Shown: positions 1 to 43,759, counted from the stretch's first letter. The stretch: DNA of 43,789 nt from Elusimicrobiaceae bacterium (GCA_017961295.1 JAGCXL010000006.1:1-43789), one strand, 5' to 3'. Program-made: numbers and translations. The notes: a model not told the origin generated them from the sequence alone.

Positions 1-505
1 CTACCCCCGTCCATTCCCAGGCAGCATCTCCGGCGTGTTCATTTTCTCTGCCTACACATGTTTCACTCGGAGTCGGCTCATCAGAAACAGGGACAGTACA
101 CGTAGCTTTTACCATCTCTTTTTCCAGATCGCTACAAGTAGGATAATCTTTGCTTAAATCATCACATCCACTTGCACAACAAATGCGTCCGTCTGTGTAA
201 GACGGTATCTTTAACGTATATTTGGCACCCGTTGCCGTTATCCCTGCCTTATCTAAAGTATAACTGAAATGTTTACTGCCCGTTTTAGGGAAAGATGCTA
301 ATTTTTCAGTCTCGCCCGTATAATCCTTATCTAACGTACAACGGGCTTCTTGTTCATTACGCACAGCGGTCATTATGTTTTCCGCTTCCGTCACTTTGCG
401 CGTCTCCAACATTTTGGTAAATTTTGGTAATACTACCGCGGACAACACGCCAATAATTACTACTACTACCAGCAATTCCGTCAAGGTAAATGCTTTCTTT
501 TGCAT
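1..505 (-). CDS. Type IV pilin-like major/minor pilin, partial (C-terminus beyond window)
   Basis: The reading frame starts at ATG 505-503 and stays open for 167 codons to the left edge, so the C-terminus is missing. The N-terminus is a class III (prepilin) signal: a short basic leader MQKK, then the processing and methylation region AFTLTELLVVVVIIGVLSAV, with the conserved Glu five residues after the Phe. Prepilin peptidase would normally cut before this hydrophobic helix; here the residue before the Phe is Ala rather than the usual Gly. The mature part is Cys-rich (Cys pairs near residues 111-116, in the segment ICCASGCDD, and others at about 126, 136 and 148), suggesting disulfides in the exported globular head. 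GGAG lies just before the start. A TTGATT-17-TATACT promoter lies upstream. Pilin-like identity is secure. Whether it builds a pilus or a type II secretion pseudopilus cannot be told here. Confidence 0.85.
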   Translation of the reverse strand, partial: MQKKAFTLTELLVVVVIIGVLSAVVLPKFTKMLETRKVTEAENIMTAVRNEQEARCTLDKDYTGETEKLASFPKTGSKHFSYTLDKAGITATGAKYTLKIPSYTDGRICCASGCDDLSKDYPTCSDLEKEMVKATCTVPVSDEPTPSETCVGRENEHAGDAAWEWTGV

Positions 506-30146: not shown

Positions 30147-30903
30147 CGAGTGCAACAAACTGAGCCGGTGACAGCTCTTCCGGACGAACCGTCAATATTA
30201 AACCACATTGTTCAAGGGCACAAGTTATCTTGGAAGTATGATATCCTCCCAAACTAAGCGCATTTAATAGTGTTTTACGCCGGTGCAAAAATGCCGTTTG
30301 CACCATACGCGAAACTGTTGCGAAATTAACAGGAGCGGTAATTTTTTCAAAAGCCAGCACGCGGCTTTCCACTTTAGGCGGAGGATTAAAACATCCGCGC
30401 CCAACATTACAAATAAGGCTAATCCGCGCACGCAACTGACTAAGCACCGAAAGTGGCCCGTATCCTTTTTCGCCAGGTTTAGCTGTAATTTTTTGGGCTT
30501 GCTCTTTTTGAAACATAAATACGGCCGTCTTAAAATACGGCCATGCCAGCACTTTATCCAAAATTTCCGCAGCATCAATATAGGGCAAATTACTGATAAA
30601 TTGCGTCGGCAAAGCGGGCAAGGTACTTAAATCAAATTGCAAAAAATTTTCTTGTACAATATGTACCTGTGCGGCAGAGGGCAAATTCTTTTTTAAAAAG
30701 GCCGCCATTGCTGGGTCAATTTCCACTGCCGTAAAACCAGTACGCCCCCGCCGAATAAGCTCTTGTGTAAGGGCTCCTTGTCCGGGACCGATTTCCACTA
30801 AATTTTCGGCCTTGAGTACCTCTGCCGCATCCACAATATCGTGAATCACACGCGAAGAGATTAAAAAATGCTGCCCGTATTTTTGAATATTACGCCCGGT
30901 CAT
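30133..30903 (-). CDS. rsmA: 16S rRNA dimethyladenosine transferase
   Basis: RsmA (KsgA) dimethylates two adjacent adenines in helix 45 of 16S rRNA, a late step in small-subunit assembly. The 256-residue protein begins KYGQHFLIS as in the family (K.GQnFL.d). SAM motif I is LVEIGPGQGALTQEL, acidic loop VEIDPAM, and the catalytic motif IV ISNLPYI. FMFQKEQAQKITAKPGEKGYGPLSV (FMvQkEva.R..a.pg.k.Yg.LSv) is diagnostic. It starts with a 4-bp overlap with the TPR gene upstream and overlaps the convergent formimidoyltransferase by 14 bp. Confidence 0.95.
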   Translation of the reverse strand: MTGRNIQKYGQHFLISSRVIHDIVDAAEVLKAENLVEIGPGQGALTQELIRRGRTGFTAVEIDPAMAAFLKKNLPSAAQVHIVQENFLQFDLSTLPALPTQFISNLPYIDAAEILDKVLAWPYFKTAVFMFQKEQAQKITAKPGEKGYGPLSVLSQLRARISLICNVGRGCFNPPPKVESRVLAFEKITAPVNFATVSRMVQTAFLHRRKTLLNALSLGGYHTSKITCALEQCGLILTVRPEELSPAQFVALANLI

Positions 30904-32594
30904 TTTTCGTCCGTAAGTACTTTTAGATTTTTAGCTGCCACTTTATTTTTAGGGTCCAATTTAAGTGCATTTGTATAGGAAGAAACTGCATTTTCGTCTT
31001 CATCGTTAATCACAGCAGCCGTACCTAACCCCAGCTGGGCCAACGAATCCTGTGGGCTGATTTGTGCCGCTTTGGAAAATGCTTGCATGGCCGTAAAACC
31101 ATCTCCTCGGGCTAAGGCCGCTAGTCCTTTTAATAACTCACACGTATCATCTGCGGGACACTCTTTATATTCGGCTAAATCTTCGGTAACCTCGTCCACA
31201 AAACCTAACCAACTGCGTCCCATAACCCATAGTCCCATATCGTTACCCACAATGCGCGGGTCATAAACCGCTTTAGGGGGTGCGGTGCGGTTTTGAGTAA
31301 GAGCAGACGGCGAATTGTAGTCCAGCGTACGCCCTTGCATAGAAAGATTTACGTTATAATTTTCCGGCGCACTGGCTACGGCCTGACGTAAGCCGTTAAT
31401 TAAATTATCAATTTGTTCCCGGCGAGATTTTTCATCTCCGCCCGGCAAACTAAAAATTCGCTTAAATGTTTGCGTTTCAGGCGCAGCAGAAGTATTTTGT
31501 AAAGATCCGGAAGCATGCAATTTTTCGTATGCTTGTTCAAAAGTGTTGGCACGCGGCGTAGATTGTTTTTGAGAAGGTGTAGCCGGCTGATATTCTAACG
31601 TCACTTCCACATTGACAGCTTTTGTGGAAGGCACTTGTTCCAAATTTTCTTTAAATTGGTTGATTTGTTTTTCAAATGCTTCTGCCGTATGACCGCTAGC
31701 ACGATACACCGCGTTTAAGGCAAGTCCGTCGTTTTTAAAGCGGGTGATGGAAAATGCTTGTTCTATTACGTTGCGGGCCTCTTGCACTTGTCCTTGCTGC
31801 ATGAGTAAAAAACCATAGCGTAAGCGGGCTACAAAATCTCCCGGTTTGACTTTCACCGCACGTTTATAATATTTTAAGGCTTCCTGCGGGCGGTTTAACT
31901 TTTCGTACAATGCGCCCAAGCTAAGCATGGCGTCTTCGTAATTAGAGAAATAATGCAATGCCTTCTTAAAAGACTCTTCGGCCAATACATCACGGCCCAG
32001 CTCTTCATATAATGTACCCAATTGATAGCGGTATAGGGCTTCACGCGGGGCTAAATCCACCGCTTGGCGGAAATGTTCTAACGCTTTATCCCAGTTACGT
32101 TGTACGGCGTACGTAGAGCCCAAATTCATATGCGTATCTGCCTTCTTGGGGTCAAAATAATTGGCTTTTAAAAAATAATCTTGCGCCTCTTGCACGTTGC
32201 CTTTCCAACCGGCCGCAATACCCAAAAGCTGATAAGCCATCGGGTTTTTGGGGTCTAATCGCAAGGCCTCGTTATATTCGCTAATAGCATCGTCCACCTT
32301 GCCGGCCCAATAGAGCGAAGCCCCCAAAAGTAGGTAACCGAGCGGATCTTTGGGGTTTTTGATGACAGCGCGCGCAAAACTATTAGATGCCGCCTGATAA
32401 TTAGTGGTGGACATTTCCCCCATACCGCGACGCATTTCCAGGATAGATTGTTCTTGCATCATACGGTCCCAAACGGTTTGAGAGTAATCCGTTTTGATTT
32501 CGGCCTTGCGAAACGAAAACGGAAACGCCGCACGAGCGGGTAGTGTTTCCCCCACCAGTAAAGCCACCATTAAAAACAAAATAATACGCCTCAT
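30900..32594 (-). CDS. Secreted/periplasmic TPR-repeat protein
   Basis: A 564-residue protein with signal peptide MRRIILFLMVALLVGETLPARA. Residues about 55-295 contain seven or so TPR repeats with the usual W-LG-Y-A-F-A-P pattern (PLGYLLLGASLYWAGKVDDAISEYNEALRLDP is one). The middle part is Gln/Thr/Ser-rich without a clear fold, and a last pair of TPRs follows at about 490-560. Such proteins are scaffolds for envelope assemblies, for example type IV pilus or secretion components (PilF, BamD-like). It follows the six-gene envelope cluster in the same orientation, making it a candidate partner. A terminator stands between them, and its own -10 (TATCAT, 6 nt before the ATG) suggests separate leaderless expression. 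rsmA follows with a 4-bp overlap. Confidence 0.85.
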   Translation of the reverse strand: MRRIILFLMVALLVGETLPARAAFPFSFRKAEIKTDYSQTVWDRMMQEQSILEMRRGMGEMSTTNYQAASNSFARAVIKNPKDPLGYLLLGASLYWAGKVDDAISEYNEALRLDPKNPMAYQLLGIAAGWKGNVQEAQDYFLKANYFDPKKADTHMNLGSTYAVQRNWDKALEHFRQAVDLAPREALYRYQLGTLYEELGRDVLAEESFKKALHYFSNYEDAMLSLGALYEKLNRPQEALKYYKRAVKVKPGDFVARLRYGFLLMQQGQVQEARNVIEQAFSITRFKNDGLALNAVYRASGHTAEAFEKQINQFKENLEQVPSTKAVNVEVTLEYQPATPSQKQSTPRANTFEQAYEKLHASGSLQNTSAAPETQTFKRIFSLPGGDEKSRREQIDNLINGLRQAVASAPENYNVNLSMQGRTLDYNSPSALTQNRTAPPKAVYDPRIVGNDMGLWVMGRSWLGFVDEVTEDLAEYKECPADDTCELLKGLAALARGDGFTAMQAFSKAAQISPQDSLAQLGLGTAAVINDEDENAVSSYTNALKLDPKNKVAAKNLKVLTDEK

Positions 32595-32610: not shown

Positions 32611-32636
32611 AAATAAGGCGGGCCTTTCGGCCCGCC
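32611..32636 (-). terminator. Terminator after the six-gene envelope cluster
   Basis: GGCGGGCC (32617-32624 on plus) and GGCCCGCC (32629-32636) form an 8-bp stem with a four-base loop. On the minus strand it is followed by TTATTTTTG, directly after the 1253-residue protein gene. Confidence 0.9.
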
Positions 32637-32654
32637 CTTTTAAACAGATTTAAC

Positions 32655-35600
32655 TTATCCTCTGCCTTTCCCTTGCGGTTGTTTTTGAGTACTACCATCA
32701 TTTCCACCGCTGGTACCTTGGCGAGTAAAGCGCTGATTTGCGACATAGGCCTTGGGACCCGGACGATCGCTAAATTGGTTCCCATAAGGTTTTGCATCCA
32801 AACCAACCCGACAGACAGTTTGCACGTATTCAAGCGCTTTATCAACTGACATCATAGCGTTCCCGGCAAAAGCTACACAAGCTTGCCCTTGGTTATCAGT
32901 TGAGTCCACATCCGAAATCATCAACCCGAAATAATTATCTTTGTTGTATTGATTACGGGTAGACGAACAATTATCCGTAGGACAATTGTGTGCCAAATCC
33001 GTGTGTCCATTGACAAGTTCAGCTAACGGATAAGTTTTCGGAATTCCCACATCATCAAACGAAGCTAAATACGCACGCAAACTGGCGTGGTTTTTAGAAT
33101 CGTTGTAATAGTTAAAATAATATGCTTTACCCATTTTCATCGTGCTCTTGCGTCCACTACATTGGGTCCCTTCGGGCAAGAAACGCCAATCGCATACTTG
33201 CATTTCTTTGCCGTAGTAGCGGGCAGGATACAAGATAGAAGTGGGGTGTACGTAAGCCAAGAAAGCGCCTAACTCGTTGCGGTAGTAACGCTTTAAGCCT
33301 TTAAAGTCATCATTACTTCCGGCCACCGGCATATTCCCCGCATGTTTATCTTTAGACATACGCACAAAATCGCGGCCTAATTCGCATACGGCTGAAGAAG
33401 GCACTTGTGTAATGCCCAATTCCTTGGCAATAAACAATGCATCTACAAATTCCCCATCCGTAGGATATTTGTTGGCATAGAATTTATCGCTTAGTTTTTT
33501 AGCTGCGTTCGGATTTCTGTCGTTATAAGTTTTGACAACATTCCGCACGAACTGAGCCGCCGCTTCCGAATCCATCATGAGCGGAATTTGGGAGCCACAA
33601 TGTTGATCCTCGCCTTTAGTAATGCTCGGCACTTTGTCACAATCACCAAAGACCTTTTCTCCCGGATTCGTGGCATCCCCGGCCTCGGTGCGGCAATCTA
33701 CCTTCCCCTCAAAGGGAACCCAAGATAACACCGGGGCTAAACGAGTCATGCTGCCGGCTTGCGGCGGAGCTTGACGGACTGTATCATCCACACACTGGCT
33801 GCCAACCGGTTGTTTGGTTGTATCCTCCTCCCAGTGGTGCGGAGTGTCACCCATCAATTTATCACAACACATAGCGCTTTGTTGCGGGCTTGTACACTCG
33901 TTTTCACGAACGTATTTTGTATAACCGTCACCGGAAAAGTTGAGCGGACAAGTTTTAGTAATAATTTGTTCGCCGCGTTTGGCTCTCCATACAACGTTGC
34001 CTACTAAGCCTTCGGGGTTGATTTTCTCCGACACATTTTTCACCTGATTAGAATCGTAAATACGTTCAAACAGGTATGTAAATGTGAATCCATCGGCAGA
34101 TCTTTCCGGTTCTATCATGGGTTGTTCTACCGGCGTTTTAGCCCCTTCGGTTCCATCGTTTAGGTAGCGGAATGAAGCTGATACTTGCACATCATCCACC
34201 GAAGGTCTTACTCCGGAACCACCTTTAAAATTGATTGCATTAAAATGCAACTTAGCCATAGCAACATCTTCCGGCCCACACTCAAAGTTAAGGTTGTCGT
34301 AGTAGCAGTTCGGACCGCGCACCATGTCTTGGTCCAATACACGCCATTTACGTTTATAGACGTTGTCACGGCTACCGTCTTTTTTGTGCGTGGTTTTTCT
34401 ATGCTGTACATAGGCGTTTTCAAACTCCCAGTACGGCAAAGGTAACAATTCTTTGAGGTGATGCCCCGATTCAAACCATTGCGCGTAGGCCAGTTTGTGT
34501 TTAGCCGCGAAAGAGCTGACGTACATAATATCTAACTGATTAAACGCTTGTTCAGCCTCTAACTCGGTAACTTTGTCTTTTCCGCCTAAATCCTTAAAGA
34601 GGTCCATCACTTTGTTTTTCATGGCCTCATAAGGCAATATATTCCCACGGGAAACAACAATGACACACGCGTCACCCAGTGCCTCTTGATCCACTTTCAA
34701 TCTTCTTTCACGAATTGCCTGTTGTTCACTCGGCACATTATCTGTTGATTTTGTTTGAGCAATTACAAAATCTCTCGCGTCATCCAATTGAGGATTTACG
34801 TGACCTACACCTCCCGTAATGTCGGCATGGTTCAAAGAACTACCGCCATTTTCACGGTTCGTAGTTGCACACAGTAGGTTTTTACCGCTAGTGGGCAAAC
34901 CTTTGAACTTTCCTTTTAAAGAATCCGGGAAGTAGTTGCGAGCCACCACATACGTATAGATATCCCATTTACGAGCTTGACCGGACGGAATGACCGTGTA
35001 GTTAGGCATATTGTCACAGTCCATACCGGCACCGTTTAAACCTAACCCGCCCGAGGCATACGCCCCTACATTAAGACCTAAACATTTCAAACGAGATTCA
35101 ATCGGCCCAAGGGCGACCTCGGATTGTATCCCGCCCTTAAAACCGCAGCTCTTATCATGTTTAAGATCTCTTAATGTTTGGCGCATAGTACCTTTACAAA
35201 AAGCTTCTAAGGAACCCGCTTTTGCAAGTTCATCCCCATACTGTACTCTTAAGTCACTTTCTTTGTAGCCACAGCATGTGGGAGCGGTTCCCCCGCCTGC
35301 GCTAACACCTAAGAAATTGTCCGGGTCACCATCGGAATCGCCCGTAATAATACAGTTTAAAAGACCTTTTAAGATGTTTTGGGCCAACTTATCAAAGAAG
35401 TTAATCCAGTCCCATTTGCGTTTGAAGCGGGCCATCCACTCCTCTTGCATACGGGTCTTCATCATGTCCCACCACCAAGGAGTTTGTCCTTTACCGATGT
35501 TGATACTATGATTAAGCTTCCCGTTCCCGCCGGTACGACCGTCGGCAAACAAGTCAATCCCGCCGTTGCGGGTAGGACCTACGGGTTTTACGTAAGAATC

Positions 35601-36416
35601 GCGAAGCGCCTCTACCGCGTTGGCTTTACCCATATTATCTAACCCTTTGCGAGCGGCAGCTGCAGCGCCTTGCCCAAAGGAGGAACGGGCCGGGCCGGCG
35701 GCACGCAACGGCTGCAAAGAAACCGGTTTAGGGGCAGAAGTCGGGCCGGAGCCTACTTTCTTGGCGGCTCCTTTAAGGCCACCACCCCAATGGTTAATCC
35801 CTAAACGGCTACCACCCGGACGGCGCAACCCCGCCGGACTAAGCGCACCAATTTTGGTACGGCGGAACGCAGCACGCGTGCCTGCACGGGCACGGCGTTT
35901 ATAAATATTGGTGGTATTTTCTTCTATGTCCATATCAGAGGAAGAGTGACGCTCGGCAGCGTATTCGCCTTCCGCTTCGCCTTCGTAAGAGGCAGAAGCA
36001 TCCAGGTCCATATCGTCGCGGGCATAGTCTTCTTCTTCGTTAGAACCCCACCCTTTAATTAAAGAGAGTGAGTCACGCCCGGCTAACTGAGCAATTTGCC
36101 CGTCCGGGTCTTCCACCATCGCGGTATCAAAACCGTAACGCTCGGGGTCAAATTCCGCACTTTCCATCCCGGGAGTTACAAGTTGGTCTTCACTGGATTG
36201 GCCGCTGTATTTGTATAAGAACGGCAACAGCAACAGCGCCACTAAAGCGGCGATGAAGAACGGGGCATCCCGGCGCGTACGCTCAAAAAGCGTGGCTTTC
36301 GGTTTGCCGTCCCGCCCGATTTTGGCGGAAGATTTAGCGAAAGATTTATTGCCAGCGGCTTTGCTGCTTTTAATCTTATCGCTAAAGGTGAAACTATCTT
36401 TCTTTTCCTCTGGCAT
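32655..36416 (-). CDS. Protein F: 1253-residue Cys-rich membrane-anchored protein, unrecognised
   Basis: A cytoplasmic N-terminus of about 50 basic residues is followed by one membrane helix (about 51-69, APFFIAALVALLLLPFLYKY). Next comes an acidic low-complexity stretch (about 95-165, rich in Asp, Glu and Ser) and a basic Arg/Gly stretch (about 170-260). The remaining roughly 950 residues are mixed alpha/beta with about 26 cysteines, including CC pairs (TCCGYK, MCCDK) and CxxxxC pairs (CPTDNC). That suits an exported, disulfide-bonded domain. I recognise no enzymatic motif. AAGGAGG precedes the ATG; a separate promoter with a 150-nt structured leader lies upstream, so F can be expressed apart from A-E. 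The linker layout (acidic, then Arg/Gly-rich) repeats that of protein A. Function unknown. Confidence 0.85.
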   Translation of the reverse strand: MPEEKKDSFTFSDKIKSSKAAGNKSFAKSSAKIGRDGKPKATLFERTRRDAPFFIAALVALLLLPFLYKYSGQSSEDQLVTPGMESAEFDPERYGFDTAMVEDPDGQIAQLAGRDSLSLIKGWGSNEEEDYARDDMDLDASASYEGEAEGEYAAERHSSSDMDIEENTTNIYKRRARAGTRAAFRRTKIGALSPAGLRRPGGSRLGINHWGGGLKGAAKKVGSGPTSAPKPVSLQPLRAAGPARSSFGQGAAAAARKGLDNMGKANAVEALRDSYVKPVGPTRNGGIDLFADGRTGGNGKLNHSINIGKGQTPWWWDMMKTRMQEEWMARFKRKWDWINFFDKLAQNILKGLLNCIITGDSDGDPDNFLGVSAGGGTAPTCCGYKESDLRVQYGDELAKAGSLEAFCKGTMRQTLRDLKHDKSCGFKGGIQSEVALGPIESRLKCLGLNVGAYASGGLGLNGAGMDCDNMPNYTVIPSGQARKWDIYTYVVARNYFPDSLKGKFKGLPTSGKNLLCATTNRENGGSSLNHADITGGVGHVNPQLDDARDFVIAQTKSTDNVPSEQQAIRERRLKVDQEALGDACVIVVSRGNILPYEAMKNKVMDLFKDLGGKDKVTELEAEQAFNQLDIMYVSSFAAKHKLAYAQWFESGHHLKELLPLPYWEFENAYVQHRKTTHKKDGSRDNVYKRKWRVLDQDMVRGPNCYYDNLNFECGPEDVAMAKLHFNAINFKGGSGVRPSVDDVQVSASFRYLNDGTEGAKTPVEQPMIEPERSADGFTFTYLFERIYDSNQVKNVSEKINPEGLVGNVVWRAKRGEQIITKTCPLNFSGDGYTKYVRENECTSPQQSAMCCDKLMGDTPHHWEEDTTKQPVGSQCVDDTVRQAPPQAGSMTRLAPVLSWVPFEGKVDCRTEAGDATNPGEKVFGDCDKVPSITKGEDQHCGSQIPLMMDSEAAAQFVRNVVKTYNDRNPNAAKKLSDKFYANKYPTDGEFVDALFIAKELGITQVPSSAVCELGRDFVRMSKDKHAGNMPVAGSNDDFKGLKRYYRNELGAFLAYVHPTSILYPARYYGKEMQVCDWRFLPEGTQCSGRKSTMKMGKAYYFNYYNDSKNHASLRAYLASFDDVGIPKTYPLAELVNGHTDLAHNCPTDNCSSTRNQYNKDNYFGLMISDVDSTDNQGQACVAFAGNAMMSVDKALEYVQTVCRVGLDAKPYGNQFSDRPGPKAYVANQRFTRQGTSGGNDGSTQKQPQGKGRG

Positions 36417-36566
36417 AGTAGGTTCCTCCTTAAAACTAAAACTGCGTTTTTACTTCGTATGCGCTAAGCAATGTAAATGGCTTATGCGCGGGTAGAACAT
36501 AAATAAATCATGCGTTGTTCGCAACTGGATACCCATTGCGTAACAACCTAACTCACAATACCTCTT
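36417..36566 (-). promoter_or_regulatory. Long structured 5' leader of gene F
   Basis: The predicted 150-nt leader contains two strong hairpins on the minus strand. One has arms GTTGTT..GCAA and TTGC..AACAAC (about 36510-36545). The other has arms GCGC.TAAGC and GCTTA.GCGC (about 36459-36489). An AAAAC/GTTTT-type stem near the AAGGAGG site follows. A cis-regulatory RNA is possible; no known riboswitch is recognised. Confidence 0.45.
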
Positions 36567-36572
36567 ACTCTT

Positions 36573-36600
36573 ATTATAACACTATTTTTCATTTTTTCAA
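36573..36600 (-). promoter_or_regulatory. Promoter of gene F
   Basis: On the minus strand TTGAAA (36595-36600) and TATAAT (36573-36578) are 16 nt apart; predicted start near 36566. Confidence 0.7.
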
Positions 36601-36629
36601 GCCCTTTTTTTAAAATTATGAAAAACTCA

Positions 36630-38948
36630 TTATAATGTTTTATTTTGTTTCATTCCTTCAACAATAGTATTAGAAACGTTTTCTTGGGACCCCGGCTGGA
36701 CATAAATAACATTCCCGTTTTCATCTACTTTTGCACGTACAACAGCCGAGAAATACTCACTGTCGGCACCCGTTTCTTCTAATACTTCATTTTCTATACT
36801 TTGGCCGTTCCACTCTTCTTGTGTATATGTTTTTGAGGCAGCTATCCATTTTTCCGTAGGATAGGGTGGAGGCGTTTCCCCATTGTCACAACGCGGCTTA
36901 TTTTGGCTACACCAATCGTCTTTCCATTTCTGTTCTTCTTCCAAATATTTAGCGTTACAGTACTGCACAAATCCATCCCATTTATCATTATACGTATCAC
37001 GAATAGATTTATCACAAGTCCCCGTAAAAGACTGCATAAGGCACTTATTACCCAACACCCCATAATCGGCGGTTACGGAATCACACAAGTTGGTAATTTT
37101 GTTAATTCTTCCCACAAACCGGGAACGACGAGCCGAATCATTAATTCCCCCATTGGGGTTGCAATCTTGCGGAAATCCCAAATTGGCTTCTGCTTTTTCA
37201 TTAAAAGAAGAAAACATCGCATTATACTGATTGATGGAATTATCAATACGCCCGCTGGCCCCGGTAGTTTTTAACTCTTCCTTACATTGTTTTTCCCACT
37301 CTAAATATTCTTGCCACTCCTTTTGATCCTGACTGAGTGAGTCCATATCAATTTGCACACCACCAAAATTAAGCACATTAGAAGCCGTTTGCGGCAAGTC
37401 CGCCCCTAAAAAGCTGGAATCGGCTAATGCCTTTTTAAGCATATTATTTTCTGTATATTTAGACATACGGCTAGTAATCCAAGCGTGGTATAAGTCCCGA
37501 TGTTCTTTTTCGTCCCCTACATCCACCACATTACTCATCCAAGTAACTTTGGTATTCTCTACCTGACGGTCCACACCGGCCAAACTGGTGGTAGCCCGTA
37601 TCATTTTTTTGGCCATATTAGAAAGCCAATCAATCGGCTTGCCATCGGAAATGTGCGGATTTTTGACTTTGGTAAGGGTTTTGGAAGAATCATAAGCATC
37701 CTGCAAATTGCGATTAATAGCCCCGGCATCACTGCCAAAATAGACATCTCCCTGCACAATGGTAGATTCCGTACGGACGATTACTTGCCCGTCGCGCAAT
37801 TGGGCCGGATCCGCCTGGGCTTCTTCCTGCCCGGCTTTAGGCATTACGGCCCCGCGCACAACGTCTAGCGGGCGGCCTTTTTCGCGTTGTAATTTCTGCA
37901 AAGCATTTATGTCAATTAAACTGGTTTGACCGCCGACACGCGCCATACGAGCATTTAACCCGGTGGCGTAATTGTCGTTGCCGTCTTCTTCTGTGGTGCT
38001 GTTGGCCGTACGCCCCCGGGCAAATAACGAAGTGCGTGACGAATCTTCCCCCCACTCTCCGGGTAAACCAATCGTTTTGTCTGTCCAGGCAAGTAACGCA
38101 CGCAAAAAAGACATACGCGCCGTATCGTCTTTACTAAACCCCATAGCATACGCTAAATTACGTAGTAGCGGAATCCTTTCAACCGGTAATACTCCCACAA
38201 TGCCACCCAGGAACAAAAGGCATAACACCGCCGCCACCCAAACCCAACGGCGGTTAAAATGTTCCTTCTGCGCATTGGGGGACGGCGGAGTGTCTGTGGG
38301 CGGAACGTTAGCCACGTTCTTTTTTTGTTTTTTGGGTTTGCGTTTTTTATTTAACAACCCCTTCTTGCGATTTTTCGTTTTTCTAACCGATACCAAAGCT
38401 GTATTTACCGCCGGGATTACTGCCGGAAGAGTGGAAGTAGATTCTTTCAGTGTGTTGCTTTCTTCTTGCGACTTCTTATGAGAAATAGATTCTGAATCGG
38501 TTGGATTGGACCCTGAATAACTACCTTTCGGGGCACGGCCTAGCGGTAAAGGCCGTGGTTCAGGATGACTTGTTTTATTGTTTTCAATAGCAGACTCTGT
38601 TAAATCCAGTTGCGGTTTAGACTCTTCATTGGCAATAGAAAATGTATGCTCTGCCGCGGGTAACTCCTGGGTAGAAAGCTCTTGCGGAACCGGCTGTGGC
38701 GGCAATGTTTTTTCTTTTTCAGCACGACGAATTTGCACCAAATCCTGAAACGTATCAATACGGGTAAGAGTACTGGTTAAAATTTCTTCTTCTGCCGGTA
38801 CTTTAGGCTGACGAATTAACCCGTTTTCCGCAATAATGGGCGCAAAGTCCTCGTGTAAGCTGAGGTCTTCTTCCGGTACAGAATTGGGCGGTGTAGGTTT
38901 ATTTTCACTCATAAGATTTTTATTTATTAAATAATCCCATAATTCCAT
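36630..38948 (-). CDS. Protein E: bitopic membrane protein with long Pro-rich cytoplasmic part, unrecognised
   Basis: 772 residues from ATG 38948 (AGGT 6 nt upstream, inside the end of gene D), or 760 from ATG 38912; the first start is preferred only weakly. The first about 225 residues are disordered-looking, rich in Pro, Glu and Ser, and end in a Lys/Arg cluster (KNRKKGLLNKKRKPKKQKK). One membrane helix follows (about 230-252, RRWVWVAAVLCLLFLGGIVGVL), so the roughly 500-residue C-terminal part lies outside the cytoplasm. It carries about eight cysteines in its last third (CNPNGG, NLCDS, NKCLM, TCDKS, YCNAK, WCSQNKPRC) and many Trp and aromatic residues. The internal stretch NARMARVGGQTSLIDINALQKLQ echoes phrases in protein D. 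No family recognised. Its 3' end is followed by gene F's own promoter. Confidence 0.82.
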   Translation of the reverse strand: MELWDYLINKNLMSENKPTPPNSVPEEDLSLHEDFAPIIAENGLIRQPKVPAEEEILTSTLTRIDTFQDLVQIRRAEKEKTLPPQPVPQELSTQELPAAEHTFSIANEESKPQLDLTESAIENNKTSHPEPRPLPLGRAPKGSYSGSNPTDSESISHKKSQEESNTLKESTSTLPAVIPAVNTALVSVRKTKNRKKGLLNKKRKPKKQKKNVANVPPTDTPPSPNAQKEHFNRRWVWVAAVLCLLFLGGIVGVLPVERIPLLRNLAYAMGFSKDDTARMSFLRALLAWTDKTIGLPGEWGEDSSRTSLFARGRTANSTTEEDGNDNYATGLNARMARVGGQTSLIDINALQKLQREKGRPLDVVRGAVMPKAGQEEAQADPAQLRDGQVIVRTESTIVQGDVYFGSDAGAINRNLQDAYDSSKTLTKVKNPHISDGKPIDWLSNMAKKMIRATTSLAGVDRQVENTKVTWMSNVVDVGDEKEHRDLYHAWITSRMSKYTENNMLKKALADSSFLGADLPQTASNVLNFGGVQIDMDSLSQDQKEWQEYLEWEKQCKEELKTTGASGRIDNSINQYNAMFSSFNEKAEANLGFPQDCNPNGGINDSARRSRFVGRINKITNLCDSVTADYGVLGNKCLMQSFTGTCDKSIRDTYNDKWDGFVQYCNAKYLEEEQKWKDDWCSQNKPRCDNGETPPPYPTEKWIAASKTYTQEEWNGQSIENEVLEETGADSEYFSAVVRAKVDENGNVIYVQPGSQENVSNTIVEGMKQNKTL

Positions 38949-40317
38949 TAGTTACCTGTCCGGTAAGCATGCCCACCGGCTCAAAGGCTTTTTTGACATT
39001 ACCCCAAATCTTGCCACCTAGCCCTTTCCAACCTTGGGGCTTAATGGCCGTATAGACCATACCGGCTACCATAATGGGCGACAAGATGACGGCCAACTTG
39101 GCAAGCCCGGTGCCGCCTGTGGAATTGTAGCGGTCTATAAATTCAACCGCCTTGACGAATAAAACTGTATTGGCAGCAGCCACCGCAGCACACATGGCAG
39201 CGGCTACAGCTACACGCCAAAATCCATGTAATTTAGGCAAGAGAATCGCCCCGGCTACCATCATAGCAATAGAACCCAAGACGGTTGCAATTAGCAAATT
39301 GCGCAAGCGGCGGTTTTCGGATTGGCGTTCGGCCAATTCCTTATCTAAATCACTGATTTTATTACCTACCGCCTTTAATTGATTATTGGTAGGAGCGGTT
39401 AAATCCCCGGACGAAGCCCCGCGGGTCATATCTTCCCCCTCGCCCACATTTACCCCGCCGGAGTTATTAGCATTGGCTAGGAACGCACGTCCACCTTCGT
39501 TGGCAGAAGAATCTGGATTACCAGCCGCATCTGCCGAGCGTTTGACAATATCTTTAAGTTCATCGCGCTCGCCTTTACTACGGGTGCCACCGATTAAACG
39601 GCCATCGTGGTTTGTGCCGAAATTAGCCGTACTGCGCCCACCAGCTAAAGCCCCGTCTAAACCGCGTTGGGAAACAATATTACTGCCCCCCGGCATAGAA
39701 CCCGACAAGCGCTGCCCTTGCTCGCCCCCTTGTGCCACAATCCCGCCGGTAACAGCACCCGAACCCCCAAACGGGTTGCCGGAAGCACGTGTAATTGAGG
39801 AACTAGAAAAACCGGATTGCCTTTGCGCAGCCGAACTGCTTGCCGCACCGTCCGCAACCGCCTCGGCCCGATTAGCGTTGGGATTTCCTACCACCAAACG
39901 GGTAGGGGCTTGCACCGTCTCGCGGTTGCCGGTATTGAGCCCAGCATCCGAATCCGCAAATTGTGCAGCCCGGGCCAAGGAATCGTCCAAAGACTTTAAG
40001 GCCTCTTGGTTTGCTACATAACGGTCTAGTGCGCTAGTGCCCTTCATAGCAGCCCGCTCCTGCGCGGTGGCTAATTGGCTACGTCCGGCGCGTACATTGA
40101 TGGAGGTAAGTAAATTGCCACGGCGCAACATACCCGCTTGCGGAGCCGTTTGCGATACGCTGGAAAGTGAACGCACCGCCCGTTTGGACTCAATATGTCT
40201 ATCCGCGGCAATATTGGCCACATAAAGAAACCCTACACCGGCCGCGCCCGAAATAATGAGTGCGTTAAGCGGCTTAATAGCACCTTGGGTACTTTTCAAA
40301 AAGCGAAATATATTCAT
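38920..40317 (-). CDS. Protein D: multi-pass membrane protein, paralogue of protein B, unrecognised
   Basis: 465 residues. The N-terminus MNIFRFLKSTQG is followed by a hydrophobic helix (about 17-37). Next comes a 280-residue extracytoplasmic low-complexity region rich in Ala, Gly, Ser, Asn and Arg. The signature SSANEGGRAFLANANNSGG then ASSGDL (about 280-315) matches one in protein B. A coiled-coil segment (about 318-340, ISDLDKELAERQSENRRL) leads to three C-terminal membrane helices (about 341-361, 368-388, 406-424) and an amphipathic tail. GGAGG stands 5 nt before the ATG. The gene starts 8 bp after gene C. Odd feature: the exported part is composed largely of small residues, so it may be extended or fibrous rather than globular. 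Confidence 0.82.
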   Translation of the reverse strand: MNIFRFLKSTQGAIKPLNALIISGAAGVGFLYVANIAADRHIESKRAVRSLSSVSQTAPQAGMLRRGNLLTSINVRAGRSQLATAQERAAMKGTSALDRYVANQEALKSLDDSLARAAQFADSDAGLNTGNRETVQAPTRLVVGNPNANRAEAVADGAASSSAAQRQSGFSSSSITRASGNPFGGSGAVTGGIVAQGGEQGQRLSGSMPGGSNIVSQRGLDGALAGGRSTANFGTNHDGRLIGGTRSKGERDELKDIVKRSADAAGNPDSSANEGGRAFLANANNSGGVNVGEGEDMTRGASSGDLTAPTNNQLKAVGNKISDLDKELAERQSENRRLRNLLIATVLGSIAMMVAGAILLPKLHGFWRVAVAAAMCAAVAAANTVLFVKAVEFIDRYNSTGGTGLAKLAVILSPIMVAGMVYTAIKPQGWKGLGGKIWGNVKKAFEPVGMLTGQVTNGIMGLFNK

Positions 40318-40325
40318 AATACCTC

Positions 40326-40610
40326 CTACCTCTCATCAAAGGCGCTGCGCGAACGTACGCCTTGATTAAATTTGTTTAACTCCTGCCGGTATTGCGCACC
40401 GCGGCGTAAAAATTCGTTATGACGGCTGGCTTCTATACGGGCCTGCTCCAATTTGGCTTTATCTTGACGTATTTGGCTACGTAAATAACATACGCACGCT
40501 ACCCATAAACTAAATAAAACTAACAGAACAATCCGTAAAATCCATACGGTTTTTTTGGAAAAAGGTTCGGTGTTTGTATCCGCTTGATAATTGGGTTCCA
40601 TAGGCGTCAT
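40326..40610 (-). CDS. Protein C: small membrane protein with coiled coil, unrecognised
   Basis: 94 residues: a short polar N-terminus, one membrane helix (about 21-44, TVWILRIVLLVLFSLWVACVCYL), then a charged helix likely to form a coiled coil (RSQIRQDKAKLEQARIEASRH...). This layout resembles FtsL/DivIC-type connector proteins, without sequence evidence for that. Its ATG overlaps the stop of gene B (ATGA). The ribosome binding site GGAGGT is encoded in the last codons of B, so expression is coupled to B. Gene D follows after 8 bp. Likely a small structural subunit linking B and D. Confidence 0.78.
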   Translation of the reverse strand: MTPMEPNYQADTNTEPFSKKTVWILRIVLLVLFSLWVACVCYLRSQIRQDKAKLEQARIEASRHNEFLRRGAQYRQELNKFNQGVRSRSAFDER

Positions 40611-42238
40611 TTACCTGCACCTCCTTCATCTTCAGTCTGCTCCACCTGATCCTTTGTTTGATGGGCTTGACTATTTGCCTCATCCACAGCAGCTTTGTAC
40701 TTATCCGGATTAGACAACATTTCAAACACACCAAATCCTCCTCCCAAAAGACCCAGCGCCGGGCCTGCCAGAGATTTAATCCCGGCAAACATAAAGTTTT
40801 TAGCTTTTAACCCCATAAGCCAAGCAGCCCCTAAGCCGGCTGTAAATACTCCACTTAGAACGTAACCAAAGGTGGTCCAACCGCTTGAACCATAATTTTG
40901 TTCATAAGAAGCCACTTTGGGGACCAACCCGAACCAAATAGTAGCCAAGCCAACCGCCGTCACTACTCCGGCAGCAGCCCAGAATATCCAGGCCCAAATA
41001 CCGGCAGCGCGAGCCAATTTGATGAGAAAAGCAATTAACACCATTAAAGCAACGGTAGTAGCAAACATGACAGCCATGTCCAATAAAAGTTGGTCTTTAT
41101 TTAGTTTTTGTTCTTCAAAATCAGTTTCATAAGAACCCAATTTTGCATTGATACCGCCCATTTGTCTAGCAAAAGTACCTCTTAAATCACCCGAGGAAGA
41201 ACCTTGCCCGGTGGTAACATTATCCCCGCTTACTGTTAAACCGCCCGAAATTTTGGCACTAGCTAAAAACGGAGCACCTCCTTCGTTAGCAGCATTAGTT
41301 TTATTGGCGTTAATCTCCGCGGTTTGCTTGCGAATAAATGCGAGCTCGTCTTTGCCTTTCCCGGTAAAACGGCGGGAACGTTGCAAAGCGGCATCTTTGT
41401 CTTTTCCTAATCCGTCCGAACTACCAAAGTTAGCACGAGATTGCAATCGGTTCCCTTCACGCATTTGAGTCATAGTCGCTTGCGCTTGAGCAATGGCACT
41501 GTTAGCTTGCGCCATAGCAGTTGCTGCCTCTTGCGCTTGTGCATTTTTACCACTATTTTGGACCGTAAAAGTATTAGCGGAACCGCTGTTACCGCCCCCA
41601 GCATGCGTTAAACCGCTATTGCCCCAGTTGCGCGGCGCACTGGCCAGTTGAGCCGCCGTTTGGCCGGACGCAACTGCTTGAGGATTAGCCCCCGGTTTGG
41701 CACCTTGACCAGCCTGAGCTTGCGCATTATTTACGGCTTGCGTAACCCCGGCTAACTGATTTTGGATAGTAGAAAAAGCTTCTAAAGACCCATTTAATTG
41801 TTTATCGGCCCCCGTACCCATACCTAAACCTAAATCCGTATTGGAAATTTGATAGGCTTTGGGAAGTTGGGGATTTACCTCGTCCCCAGGTTGCTGGTAG
41901 GTTTGCTGTCCGGCAGATTCTTCCAAAGCGCGGGTTTGCGCTTGGCGGGCAGCCTCTTGATTAGCTAACTGAATCGCACGGGACGGAGTCGCTTTGAACG
42001 AGGAGCCAACCTCGCCGTTGGCTTCATACTGGCCGCCTCCCCCGTTTTGGGAAACATAGACCACCTGCCCTTGATTGGCAGTGGGCGGCAAGAAGGTATT
42101 GTTAGTATCGGCAGGAGAGCTTAAAAAGCTCATCGCGCCAAAACCGGCAGCACCCACTACTGCGGTAATTCCCGCGGCCTGGGCTAACGAAATAGGCAGT
42201 TTGCCTGTTTTATTTTTAAGCCATTTAAAAATATTCAT
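40607..42238 (-). CDS. Protein B: multi-pass membrane protein, paralogue of protein D, unrecognised
   Basis: 543 residues from ATG 42238 (GGAGG 4 nt upstream). The alternative start at 42268 lacks such a site. The N-terminus MNIFKWLKNKTGK parallels MNIFRFLKSTQG of protein D, and is followed by a hydrophobic helix (about 17-39). A region of 300 or more residues rich in Ala, Gln, Gly and Asn follows, with heptad-like Ala/Gln stretches (AQAQEAATAMAQANSAIAQA). The signature NAANEGGAPFLASAKISGG then GSSSGDL is shared with D. Several C-terminal helices follow (from about 385: LLDMAVMFATTVALMVLIAFL; then WAWIFWAAAGVVTAVGLATI, TFGYVLSGVFTAGLGAAWLM, LAGPALGLLGGGFGVF), one or two more than in D. An acidic tail ends in DEGGAGK. 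No known family recognised. Confidence 0.83.
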   Translation of the reverse strand: MNIFKWLKNKTGKLPISLAQAAGITAVVGAAGFGAMSFLSSPADTNNTFLPPTANQGQVVYVSQNGGGGQYEANGEVGSSFKATPSRAIQLANQEAARQAQTRALEESAGQQTYQQPGDEVNPQLPKAYQISNTDLGLGMGTGADKQLNGSLEAFSTIQNQLAGVTQAVNNAQAQAGQGAKPGANPQAVASGQTAAQLASAPRNWGNSGLTHAGGGNSGSANTFTVQNSGKNAQAQEAATAMAQANSAIAQAQATMTQMREGNRLQSRANFGSSDGLGKDKDAALQRSRRFTGKGKDELAFIRKQTAEINANKTNAANEGGAPFLASAKISGGLTVSGDNVTTGQGSSSGDLRGTFARQMGGINAKLGSYETDFEEQKLNKDQLLLDMAVMFATTVALMVLIAFLIKLARAAGIWAWIFWAAAGVVTAVGLATIWFGLVPKVASYEQNYGSSGWTTFGYVLSGVFTAGLGAAWLMGLKAKNFMFAGIKSLAGPALGLLGGGFGVFEMLSNPDKYKAAVDEANSQAHQTKDQVEQTEDEGGAGK

Positions 42239-42323
42239 AAAACCTCCAAAATCTGTGGAAACTGTCACAAGGTACAGATTCTCGACTACTACCTTTTATC
42301 ATCAGGCAGTGCCTAAATTATAA
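42239..42323 (-). promoter_or_regulatory. A-B intergenic leader with inverted repeat
   Basis: AATCTGT (42250-42256) and ACAGATT (42274-42280) are reverse complements with a 17-nt loop, just ahead of the GGAGG of gene B. A TATAAT (42317-42322 on minus) overlaps the end of gene A without a convincing -35. It may adjust the A:B ratio. Confidence 0.3.
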
Positions 42324-43640
42324 CTACTTGTTACTACTGTTATTATCGTTGCTATTATTGTTACTATTATTGTTATTATTATTCTTTTGCCCAACTTGCA
42401 ACACTTCAGCGGTGTGCGTAGTCCCTTGAGCCAATCTTTGTTGTTCCGATTTAGCAGATTTGCCAAGAGAGGTTGCCTCTGTCCCGTTTTTTACCGTGTT
42501 CATCTTTTCTTTGGCGGAATATCTGTTATTATCCCAATCTTCGGCTGTACGACCTTTTGCCTCCCAAGCGGCCTGTTCCGATTTGGTTAATTTGTCATAA
42601 CTTTTGCCGGACTGCTCGGTGGCATATTGTGTACGAGCAGCGCGGGAAGCACTATTACCGTTAATCCAGCCTTTTACATGATCGCCAACTCCGTCCATAA
42701 CGGAAGCCACTAAACTACTAGCCGCCTGCTTGGCAAGGTCAATGAGCATTTCTTCCCACCATTCCCGCTTTTCTTCTTTCTGTTGCTTTTCAGCTTTTTT
42801 CACAGCTTCGGCTACTTTTTTATCTAAATTTTCTAAACCCGTAGTATGTGGTAATGCCCCATCTTCAATTTGAAAACCACCTGTGGAACCAATTGTCGGA
42901 GCCGTAGGAACTGGATTTTGACCATCCAAACTAAGTTGCATAAGTGCCTTTTTTTGATCCGTCATGGCCCTATCGCCTTTTCCACGAATGGCCTGCGCAG
43001 AAGCAGTTCTAAACGCCGCGGCCTCTTTTTGTTTTCCAATCACAAGAGGCGCCGGAGCCTCGTGACCGCGGTCTTCACGCCCTTTGTATTGGCGGAAATC
43101 TCCCGTCGGTCCCCAAGTAGCACTCACGCCAGTACCCCCAGCACTGGCCATACCCGCAGCCCCTAATTGACCCATTTCGGTCTTGGTAGGGGTACGTCCA
43201 CCACGCCGCCCCGATCCACCGCCGCCATACCCGCCGTAACCACCACGGTCGGTAGAGGCGTCACCGGAGTCACTTGATGCCTCCGCACCTTCCATACTTC
43301 CCTCGTACGCGTACTCTTCAGCGGCTTGTTCATCGGCTTCTTGCCGGGCTTCTTTCTCGGCCGCGGAATATAAAAGGGTAGAGCCGTTTTCCCGCATGTC
43401 CGGGTAGGCATTAGCCAATAAAAATTTTTCGGCTTCATCTGTGGCAAAAGGCATATTTGCCAAATCATACCCGCGAGCTTTCATTCCCTCAAAAGAGCCA
43501 TCTTCCCCGCCGGTCATCGCAGAGATTAACATCAGCAAAGCCACAACACTTACGACGACAATTGCGCCAATCGTGTAGGCCTGTTTGCGGTCCATTTTGT
43601 TTATCTTCTCAAAAACTTTTTTCGGTTTAAATGTAAACAT
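42324..43640 (-). CDS. Protein A: bitopic membrane protein with Gly-rich linker and poly-Asn tail, unrecognised
   Basis: 438 residues from ATG 43640. A GTG at 43721 opens the frame, but 27 residues earlier there is no hydrophobic or family signal and it lies only a few nt from the predicted transcript start. A basic N-terminus (FKPKKVFEKINKMDRKQ) is followed by one membrane helix (about 20-41). The exported part has an acidic stretch, a Gly/Tyr/Arg-rich stretch (GGYGGYGGGGSGRRGGR), a helical Lys/Glu-rich coiled-coil segment at about 285-320 (NLDKKVAEAVKKAEKQQKEEK), and a C-terminal tail of 19 residues, almost all Asn and Ser, encoded by AAT/AAC/AGT repeats. First gene of the A-F cluster, behind a strong promoter. 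Function unknown. Confidence 0.8.
   Translation of the reverse strand: MFTFKPKKVFEKINKMDRKQAYTIGAIVVVSVVALLMLISAMTGGEDGSFEGMKARGYDLANMPFATDEAEKFLLANAYPDMRENGSTLLYSAAEKEARQEADEQAAEEYAYEGSMEGAEASSDSGDASTDRGGYGGYGGGGSGRRGGRTPTKTEMGQLGAAGMASAGGTGVSATWGPTGDFRQYKGREDRGHEAPAPLVIGKQKEAAAFRTASAQAIRGKGDRAMTDQKKALMQLSLDGQNPVPTAPTIGSTGGFQIEDGALPHTTGLENLDKKVAEAVKKAEKQQKEEKREWWEEMLIDLAKQAASSLVASVMDGVGDHVKGWINGNSASRAARTQYATEQSGKSYDKLTKSEQAAWEAKGRTAEDWDNNRYSAKEKMNTVKNGTEATSLGKSAKSEQQRLAQGTTHTAEVLQVGQKNNNNNNSNNNSNDNNSSNK
42327..42383 (-). repeat. AAT/AAC trinucleotide repeat coding the poly-Asn tail
   Basis: 19 codons at the end of gene A read almost entirely Asn and Ser (one Asp, a final Lys). The DNA is an imperfect AAY repeat, so copy-number changes would keep the frame. 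Confidence 0.85.
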
Positions 43641-43730
43641 AGCGTTAACCCCATACAAATAAAAACTACTCTTGTTGACCCGCGCCCACCGAACCGCGCG
43701 CTCAAACACAGAGTGATACACCTTAATACT

Positions 43731-43759
43731 AGTATAGATAGAGAAACGTATTTTGTCAA
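43731..43759 (-). promoter_or_regulatory. Strong sigma70-type promoter of the A-F cluster
   Basis: On the minus strand a perfect TTGACA (43754-43759) and TATACT (43731-43736) are exactly 17 nt apart, the best promoter in the window. Predicted start near 43724; the leader of about 84 nt contains a CGCGC/GCGCG hairpin before gene A. Confidence 0.85.

What the first reader, a model, noticed from the sequence alone, without database searches (positions are those of the whole stretch)
32655..43759. Six-gene cluster of unrecognised envelope proteins (A-F): candidate new surface or secretion apparatus
All six genes lie on the same strand behind a near-consensus promoter, with coupled starts inside the cluster (B/C overlap ATGA, C/D 8 bp, D/E overlapping or adjacent). 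Every product has an N-terminal or near-N-terminal membrane anchor. A, E and F are bitopic with large exported parts. B and D are multi-pass with long Ala/Gly/Asn-rich exported regions. C is a small coiled-coil connector. F has about 26 Cys and E about eight, like the Cys-rich pilin at the left edge. A secreted TPR protein follows. No ATPase, secretin or known secretion motif is visible, so this is not a standard type II, III, IV or VI system. The inference is an envelope-spanning complex whose core channel or platform is B/D, possibly working with the type IV pilus.
Basis: partly seen in the sequence, partly recalled or inferred. Interest (0 to 1): 0.85.

Follow-up and report, generated by a model that had tools for sequence, protein, structure and literature searches.

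The report
Unknown membrane genes beside Tad pilus
Six unrecognised membrane-anchored proteins of gut Elusimicrobiaceae bacteria turn out to be a fixed, family-specific extension of a Tad (Flp-type) pilus gene locus cut off at the window edge, and the operon starts with a previously undescribed, strongly conserved RNA hairpin.

Summary
The six genes are real, co-directional and conserved in order (A-B-C-D-E-F, usually then a TPR gene and rsmA) across dozens of Elusimicrobiaceae genomes. A-F match no Pfam, NCBIfam or PHROG family. The neighbouring contig overlaps the window by 68 bp (one mismatch) and carries a Tad/type IVc pilus locus: Flp, TadE, RcpC, secretin, a TadZ-TadA fusion, TadB, TadC, a TPR gene, regulators, a TadG-like gene and a second TadE. 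In 34 of 37 testable genomes of the genus, A directly follows the second TadE. The Tad locus itself is order-wide; B-F are found only in this family, and a distant genus keeps diverged A, B/D, E and F in collinear order. B and D are paralogues. F carries an Ig-like domain, and even cysteine counts in E and F point to disulphides in an exported compartment. A second find: A's promoter and a covarying hairpin in its leader are conserved family-wide. They precede every A homologue examined, and also F in the presumed E. minutum, where the cluster is split. Most likely A-F form a Tad-associated envelope complex; that function is inferred, not shown.

The parts
43731..43759 (-). Promoter of A: TTGACA-N17-TATACT
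   Evidence: 11/12 match; a site of 10/12 or better before 94% of 48 A loci, 5% in shuffles
43655..43721 (-). Conserved leader RNA hairpin (ACUCUGUGUUUGAGCG...CGGGUCAACAAGAGU, then a U-rich stretch) between the promoter and gene A
   Evidence: 9 of 16 pairs with compensatory change; covariation 0.435 against 0.21 shuffled; 74 of 295 phylum genomes, only this family; A homologue beside all 30 loci checked; no Rfam match
42324..43640 (-). Gene A, 438 aa, one N-terminal TM, Gly/Ala-rich exported part
40607..42238 (-). Gene B, 543 aa, N-terminal TM, long low-complexity region, C-terminal TMs; paralogue of D
   Evidence: (hhalign E 1.3e-47)
40326..40610 (-). Gene C, 94 aa, one TM plus predicted coiled coil; overlaps B by 4 bp
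38920..40317 (-). Gene D, 465 aa, paralogue of B; shares a motif of about 25 residues with A
36630..38912 (-). Gene E, 760 aa, TM at 221-250, exported Cys-rich helical domain
   Evidence: model mean pLDDT 66.6; even Cys number in 44 of 50
36573..36600 (-). Separate promoter of F: TTGAAA-N16-TATAAT
   Evidence: a site of 10/12 or better before 52% of F loci, 5% in shuffles
32655..36416 (-). Gene F, 1253 aa, TM at 49-72, very conserved N-terminus and PWWWDMMK motif, Cys-rich exported region with an Ig-like domain at about 707-831
   Evidence: even Cys number in 48 of 57
32615..32638 (-). Terminator-like hairpin after F
   Evidence: 10 pairs, 8 of them G-C
30900..32594 (-). Secreted TPR protein, 564 aa, conserved neighbour of F in most loci

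Best explanation
A-F, with the TPR protein, are a lineage-specific module added to the 3' end of the Tad (type IVc, Flp) pilus locus of Elusimicrobiaceae. Shown: gene order, linkage, distribution, B/D paralogy, and the regulatory leader with its covariation. Strongly supported: export of the soluble parts of E and F. Inferred mechanism: TadZA, TadB and TadC extend an Flp pilus through RcpC and the secretin. TadG-like and TadE2 act as minor (tip) pilins. B and D are inner-membrane paralogues with long flexible periplasmic arms; A, C, E and F are anchored beside them and reach into the periplasm. E is a disulphide-stapled helical bundle. F is the largest reaching part, with an Ig-like module. 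Together with the TPR protein they would build an accessory envelope assembly that adapts the Tad pilus for contact or adhesion in the gut. A-E are expressed from a dedicated promoter whose transcript begins with a conserved hairpin, probably bound by a regulator or acting as an attenuator.
For: The Tad genes lie on the adjoining contig, identified by Pfam: RcpC 1.4e-17, secretin 3e-42, T2SSE 1e-61, T2SSF 4e-17 and 4e-16, TadE above cut-off; contig overlap 68 bp with one mismatch. TadG - TadE2 - A in 34 of 37 testable genus loci and in part of the sister genus (exceptions), and also in genus g14. The distant genus g16 of the family has A, B/D, E and F homologues in collinear order after TadE2 (E 1e-3 to 7e-6). 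A run of genes after TadE2 is therefore ancestral in the family, while the Tad locus up to TadE2 is order-wide. Export of E and F: even Cys numbers. Co-regulation: R1 hits precede A in all 30 loci checked, and both F and A in the presumed E. minutum.
Against: The A-F block is unlinked from Tad in L078, L082 and L111, in several g12 genomes, and in the presumed E. minutum, where F stands alone near kdsA/lptA. A-F have their own promoters. No sequence or fold links A-F to any Tad component. The Tad locus works without B-F in the sister family. Nothing shows a physical complex.
Confidence: 0.55

Rival explanations
1. A-F are an independent envelope or surface assembly that merely sits downstream of the Tad locus and is expressed and used separately.
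For: Own promoter and leader RNA; detached from Tad in the presumed E. minutum, several g12 genomes and three genus loci, where the A-F block itself stays together; F stands alone in some genomes.
Against: Adjacency to TadE2 is kept in 34 of 37 genus loci and in g14, g16 and part of g12, i.e. across the family's diversity; every sampled genome with F or the leader RNA also has a TadE match.
Confidence: 0.27
2. A-F are not one complex but separate surface-anchored proteins (adhesins, cell-wall proteins) that share a regulon.
For: Long low-complexity exported regions; Ig-like domain in F; variable C-termini; F found alone in several genomes.
Against: Translational coupling and fixed order; B/D paralogy; pairwise motifs shared between A and D and between E and F.
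Confidence: 0.12
3. One reading: a new secretion or surface apparatus without its own ATPase that works with the type IVa pilus.
For: A Cys-rich pilin lies at the left window edge; PilB/PilC-type genes exist in the genome.
Against: The neighbouring machine is Tad, with its own ATPase and secretin; the T4aP genes are on other contigs; no shared gene order with T4aP was seen.
Confidence: 0.05

Closest known systems
Tad / Flp (type IVc) pilus locus; Tad systems in Elusimicrobia noted by Denise et al. 2019 (PMC6668835)
   Same: The adjoining genes encode Flp, TadE, RcpC, secretin, TadZ, TadA, TadB, TadC, a TPR protein in the TadD position, TadG-like and TadE2.
   Different: A-F have no recognised counterpart in described tad loci; TadZ and TadA are fused and the secretin is only about 247 aa; the locus carries its own histidine kinase and response regulators.
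Kil system of Myxococcus xanthus (Tad-like pilus with minor-pilin tips, coupled to a needleless T3SS*; PMC12075869)
   Same: A Tad pilus with extra minor pilins and a functional link to a separate envelope complex: a precedent for an accessory envelope machine beside a Tad pilus.
   Different: A-F show no family match to T3SS or other secretion parts; no predation function is known here.
RcpC alignment complex of the Pseudomonas Tad pilus (PMC12307814)
   Same: IM-anchored periplasmic protein of a Tad locus; RcpC itself is present here.
   Different: A-F are additional proteins without RcpC similarity.
Structured 5' leader RNAs (riboswitches, protein-binding leaders, attenuators)
   Same: Short covarying hairpin between promoter and start codon, followed by a U-rich stretch.
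   Different: No Rfam family matches; restricted to one gene cluster in one bacterial family.

Membership tests
Tad / type IVc pilus locus (the locus as a whole) | TadE-type pseudopilin gene | tested here: met
   PF07811 over cut-off in all 10 genomes tested; of 14 control genomes only Caulobacter rings
Tad / type IVc pilus locus (the locus as a whole) | RcpC/CpaB, secretin, TadA ATPase, TadB and TadC in one locus | tested here: met
   PF16976 1.4e-17, PF00263 3e-42, PF00437 1e-61, PF00482 twice
Tad / type IVc pilus locus (the locus as a whole) | Flp pilin | tested here: inconclusive
   79-aa gene with a GQNTVEY motif in the expected place; PF16982 only E 0.0045, below cut-off
Tad / type IVc pilus locus (the locus as a whole) | TadV prepilin peptidase | not tested
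   Not searched for
Tad / type IVc pilus component (A-F themselves) | Sequence similarity to a described Tad protein | tested here: not met
   No Pfam, NCBIfam or PHROG match above cut-off for A-F
Tad / type IVc pilus component (A-F themselves) | Genetic linkage to the tad genes | tested here: met
   34 of 37 genus loci, plus g14, g16 and part of g12
Type IVa pilus | Linkage of A-F to pilB/pilC-type genes | tested here: not met
   The T2SSF tandem pair and the largest T2SSE hit lie on C13; those next to A-F are the Tad ones
Kil-like contact-killing apparatus | Minor-pilin tip complexes plus T3SS*-like basal body | not tested
   Analogy from PMC12075869 only; no T3SS family search was made in these genomes
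Known Rfam RNA family (leader element) | Match above a gathering score | tested here: not met
NusG-paralogue (LoaP/RfaH-type) antitermination leader | A NusG paralogue beside housekeeping NusG | tested here: not met
   One PF02357 match in each of 8 genomes

The most novel reading that the evidence does not exclude
A-F form a new kind of envelope-spanning machine that is coupled to, and perhaps powered by or deployed with, a Tad pilus (as the T3SS* is with Kil), and whose synthesis is controlled by a new class of leader RNA found only in Elusimicrobiaceae.
Probability: 0.25. Interest if true: 0.85.

Novelty: new variant of a known kind. Interest (0 to 1): 0.62.

Why it matters
Elusimicrobiaceae are widespread, mostly uncultured gut bacteria (rumen, hindgut, chicken) whose surface biology is largely unknown. 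The result turns six orphan proteins into a testable hypothesis, a Tad pilus with a large added envelope complex. It bears on how Tad pili are customised, an open question after the Myxococcus tip work (PMC12075869). The leader RNA is a separate, concrete new element: covarying, present almost family-wide, and dedicated to one gene cluster.

Tried and rejected
Known families for A-F: Pfam, NCBIfam and PHROGs gave only sub-threshold noise. Folds: the E model (mean pLDDT 66.6) is a helical bundle with best PDB Z 7.0 (rmsd 4.0, 137 aligned), to a tmFAP entry, with designed helical proteins close behind; the F C-terminal model (mean pLDDT 72.1) gave only an Ig-like domain (best Z 7.1, rmsd 3.8, 104 aligned), other parts barely tested. 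NusG-paralogue antitermination: rejected, one NusG per genome. Known leader RNA: none. The single-sequence folding energy of the hairpin is unremarkable (z -0.9); the case rests on covariation. VKOR as the disulphide-forming enzyme: absent in 7 genomes; Dsb proteins not searched. The gene after TadE2 in the sister family f2 looks like A in layout, but homology could not be shown (best hhalign E 6e-4 over 22 residues of the TM segment). A common motif in all of A, B, D, E and F was suspected by eye; only A-D and E-F (besides B-D) stood clearly above the null. The E. minutum genome paper is not held, so whether it names these genes could not be checked.

Full report
Observation. Coupling is real: B/C overlap by 4 bp, C-D gap 8 bp, D-E gap 7 bp. 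Hydropathy supports one membrane segment in A, C, E and F and several in B and D; F has 26 Cys and E has 9. None of A-F matches a Pfam, NCBIfam or PHROG family above cut-off. The protein after F is a secreted TPR protein.

Conservation. F is found in 73 of 295 sampled Elusimicrobiota genomes, all in one family; a named-genome scan returned 71 loci, with record titles of Elusimicrobium, Elusimicrobiaceae, Elusimicrobiales, Avelusimicrobium or uncultured gut bacteria. Gene order A-B-C-D-E-F, mostly followed by the TPR gene and rsmA, is kept in nearly all; in one clade C sits between D and E or was not detected, and the TPR gene was often not found. B and D are paralogues (blastp 8e-27; profile comparison E 1.3e-47). 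A shares a short motif with D (hhalign E 4.5e-5; z 17.5 against a block-shuffled null), and E one with F (z 5.6).

What lies beyond the window. The window contig ends 149 bp upstream of A. In relatives the genes upstream of A are a TadG-like and a TadE-like pseudopilin. Family searches put TadE, a T2SSE ATPase and two T2SSF proteins just upstream in the relatives, and on contig C19 in the window's own genome. The first 68 bp of C19 equal the last 68 bp of the window with one mismatch; part of this overlap recurs within the first 360 bp of C19, which may explain the assembly break. Read in order, the locus is: large surface protein, UPF0164/PorV-like protein, Flp-like pilin, TadE, RcpC, short secretin, TadZ-TadA fusion, TadB, TadC, TPR protein in the TadD position, HAMP protein, small membrane protein, secreted protein, histidine kinase, NtrC-like and NarL-like regulators, TadG-like, TadE2, then A-F. 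The TadZ-TadA gene of the source genome carries a TGA break that relatives lack.

Linkage and history. A directly follows TadE2 in 34 of 37 genus loci with enough upstream sequence; the exceptions are L078, L082 and L111, where the A-F block moved as a unit. Linkage also holds in part of genus g12 and in g14. In G090, whose length of 1,643,562 bp matches E. minutum Pei191 (identification from memory), the Tad locus ends with TadE2, A-B/D-C lies elsewhere and F stands alone near kdsA and lpt genes. In g16, a distant genus of the family, eight co-directional genes follow TadE2; the A, B/D, E and F profiles each pick a different one, in collinear order, with E-values of 1e-3 to 7e-6 in a set of a few hundred ORFs. 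Individually weak, these hits are persuasive together. In the sister family f2 the Tad locus has the same order through TadE2 but is followed by one A-like gene (homology not shown) and a PDZ-type lipoprotein. The parsimonious reading is that the module grew at the end of an old Tad locus in Elusimicrobiaceae and was later split off in some lineages. TadE itself is in 238 of 295 phylum genomes, so co-occurrence alone is not informative; linkage is.

Topology and folds. The number of Cys in the exported part is even in 48 of 57 F and 44 of 50 E homologues, as expected if they pair as disulphides outside the cytoplasm. The E model is a helical bundle without an informative match. The F C-terminal model contains an Ig-like sandwich at F residues of about 707-831; the remainder has no clear match, but large multi-domain models are poorly tested by this search.

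Leader RNA. Looking for the promoter of A in relatives showed TTGACA-N17-TATACT in nearly all, followed by a conserved hairpin. On 39 sequences, 98.2% of cells pair, 9 of 16 pairs have compensatory changes, and the covariation score is 0.435 against 0.210 for shuffles and at most 0.125 for slid controls. For example, the outer stem is ACUCU/AGAGU in the genus and GCUCC/GGGGC in g12. A covariance model finds the element in 74 of 295 phylum genomes, only in this family, including genera outside the seed. All 30 loci fetched with the strongest hits hold an A homologue, and the outliers also precede A homologues. In the presumed E. minutum both the A trio and the lone F are preceded by it: two separated halves of the module keep the same leader. 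In the genus, F instead has its own promoter. There is no Rfam match. A U-rich stretch follows the stem, so attenuation is possible; protein binding is equally possible. NusG-paralogue antitermination is unlikely.

Interpretation. Linkage, distribution, paralogy and the shared leader are shown. That A-F form one complex, and that it works with the Tad pilus, are inferences. The Myxococcus Kil pilus, with exchangeable tips and dependence on a second envelope complex (PMC12075869), is a precedent for how such a module might work, not evidence of membership. Tad systems in Elusimicrobia were already reported (PMC6668835); the A-F extension and the leader RNA were not found described in the papers searched, a search limited to open-licence papers.

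Noticed in passing
window 43655-43721 (-) and homologues (model R1): New conserved leader RNA hairpin upstream of A (and of F in the presumed E. minutum), covarying, family-specific, no Rfam match.
   Followed up: yes
L204 12366-14684 (own contig C19): TadZ (MinD-like) and TadA ATPase are fused in one protein in Elusimicrobiota Tad loci; in the source genome the gene carries a TGA break that relatives lack (possible sequencing error).
   Followed up: partly
L205 7465-8208: The Tad secretin is unusually short (247 aa), essentially a bare secretin domain.
   Followed up: no
L204 1-360 (own contig C19): A sequence of about 40 bp (CAAGACCTGTTTTCT..CTATTTTAGGCCCATACTTTGTTGCTC) occurs twice and overlaps the window end; possibly a dispersed repeat that broke the assembly.
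   Followed up: no
L266 15428-16750 and L267 10089-11339: In the sister family f2 the gene found after TadE2 is an A-like bitopic protein, present in most f2 genomes and followed by a PDZ-type lipoprotein; homology to A not shown.
   Followed up: partly
L264 6481-17058: Genus g16 carries several B/D-like glycine-rich multi-pass proteins in a row after TadE2.
   Followed up: partly
L204 18189-20000 and 17170-18147: A large surface protein and a PorV/UPF0164-like outer-membrane protein precede the Flp pilin gene, suggesting a further secretion or surface link of the Tad locus.
   Followed up: no
window 2-505 (-): Cys-rich type IV pilin at the left edge, about 30 kb from the cluster; no sign of linkage to A-F.
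   Followed up: no
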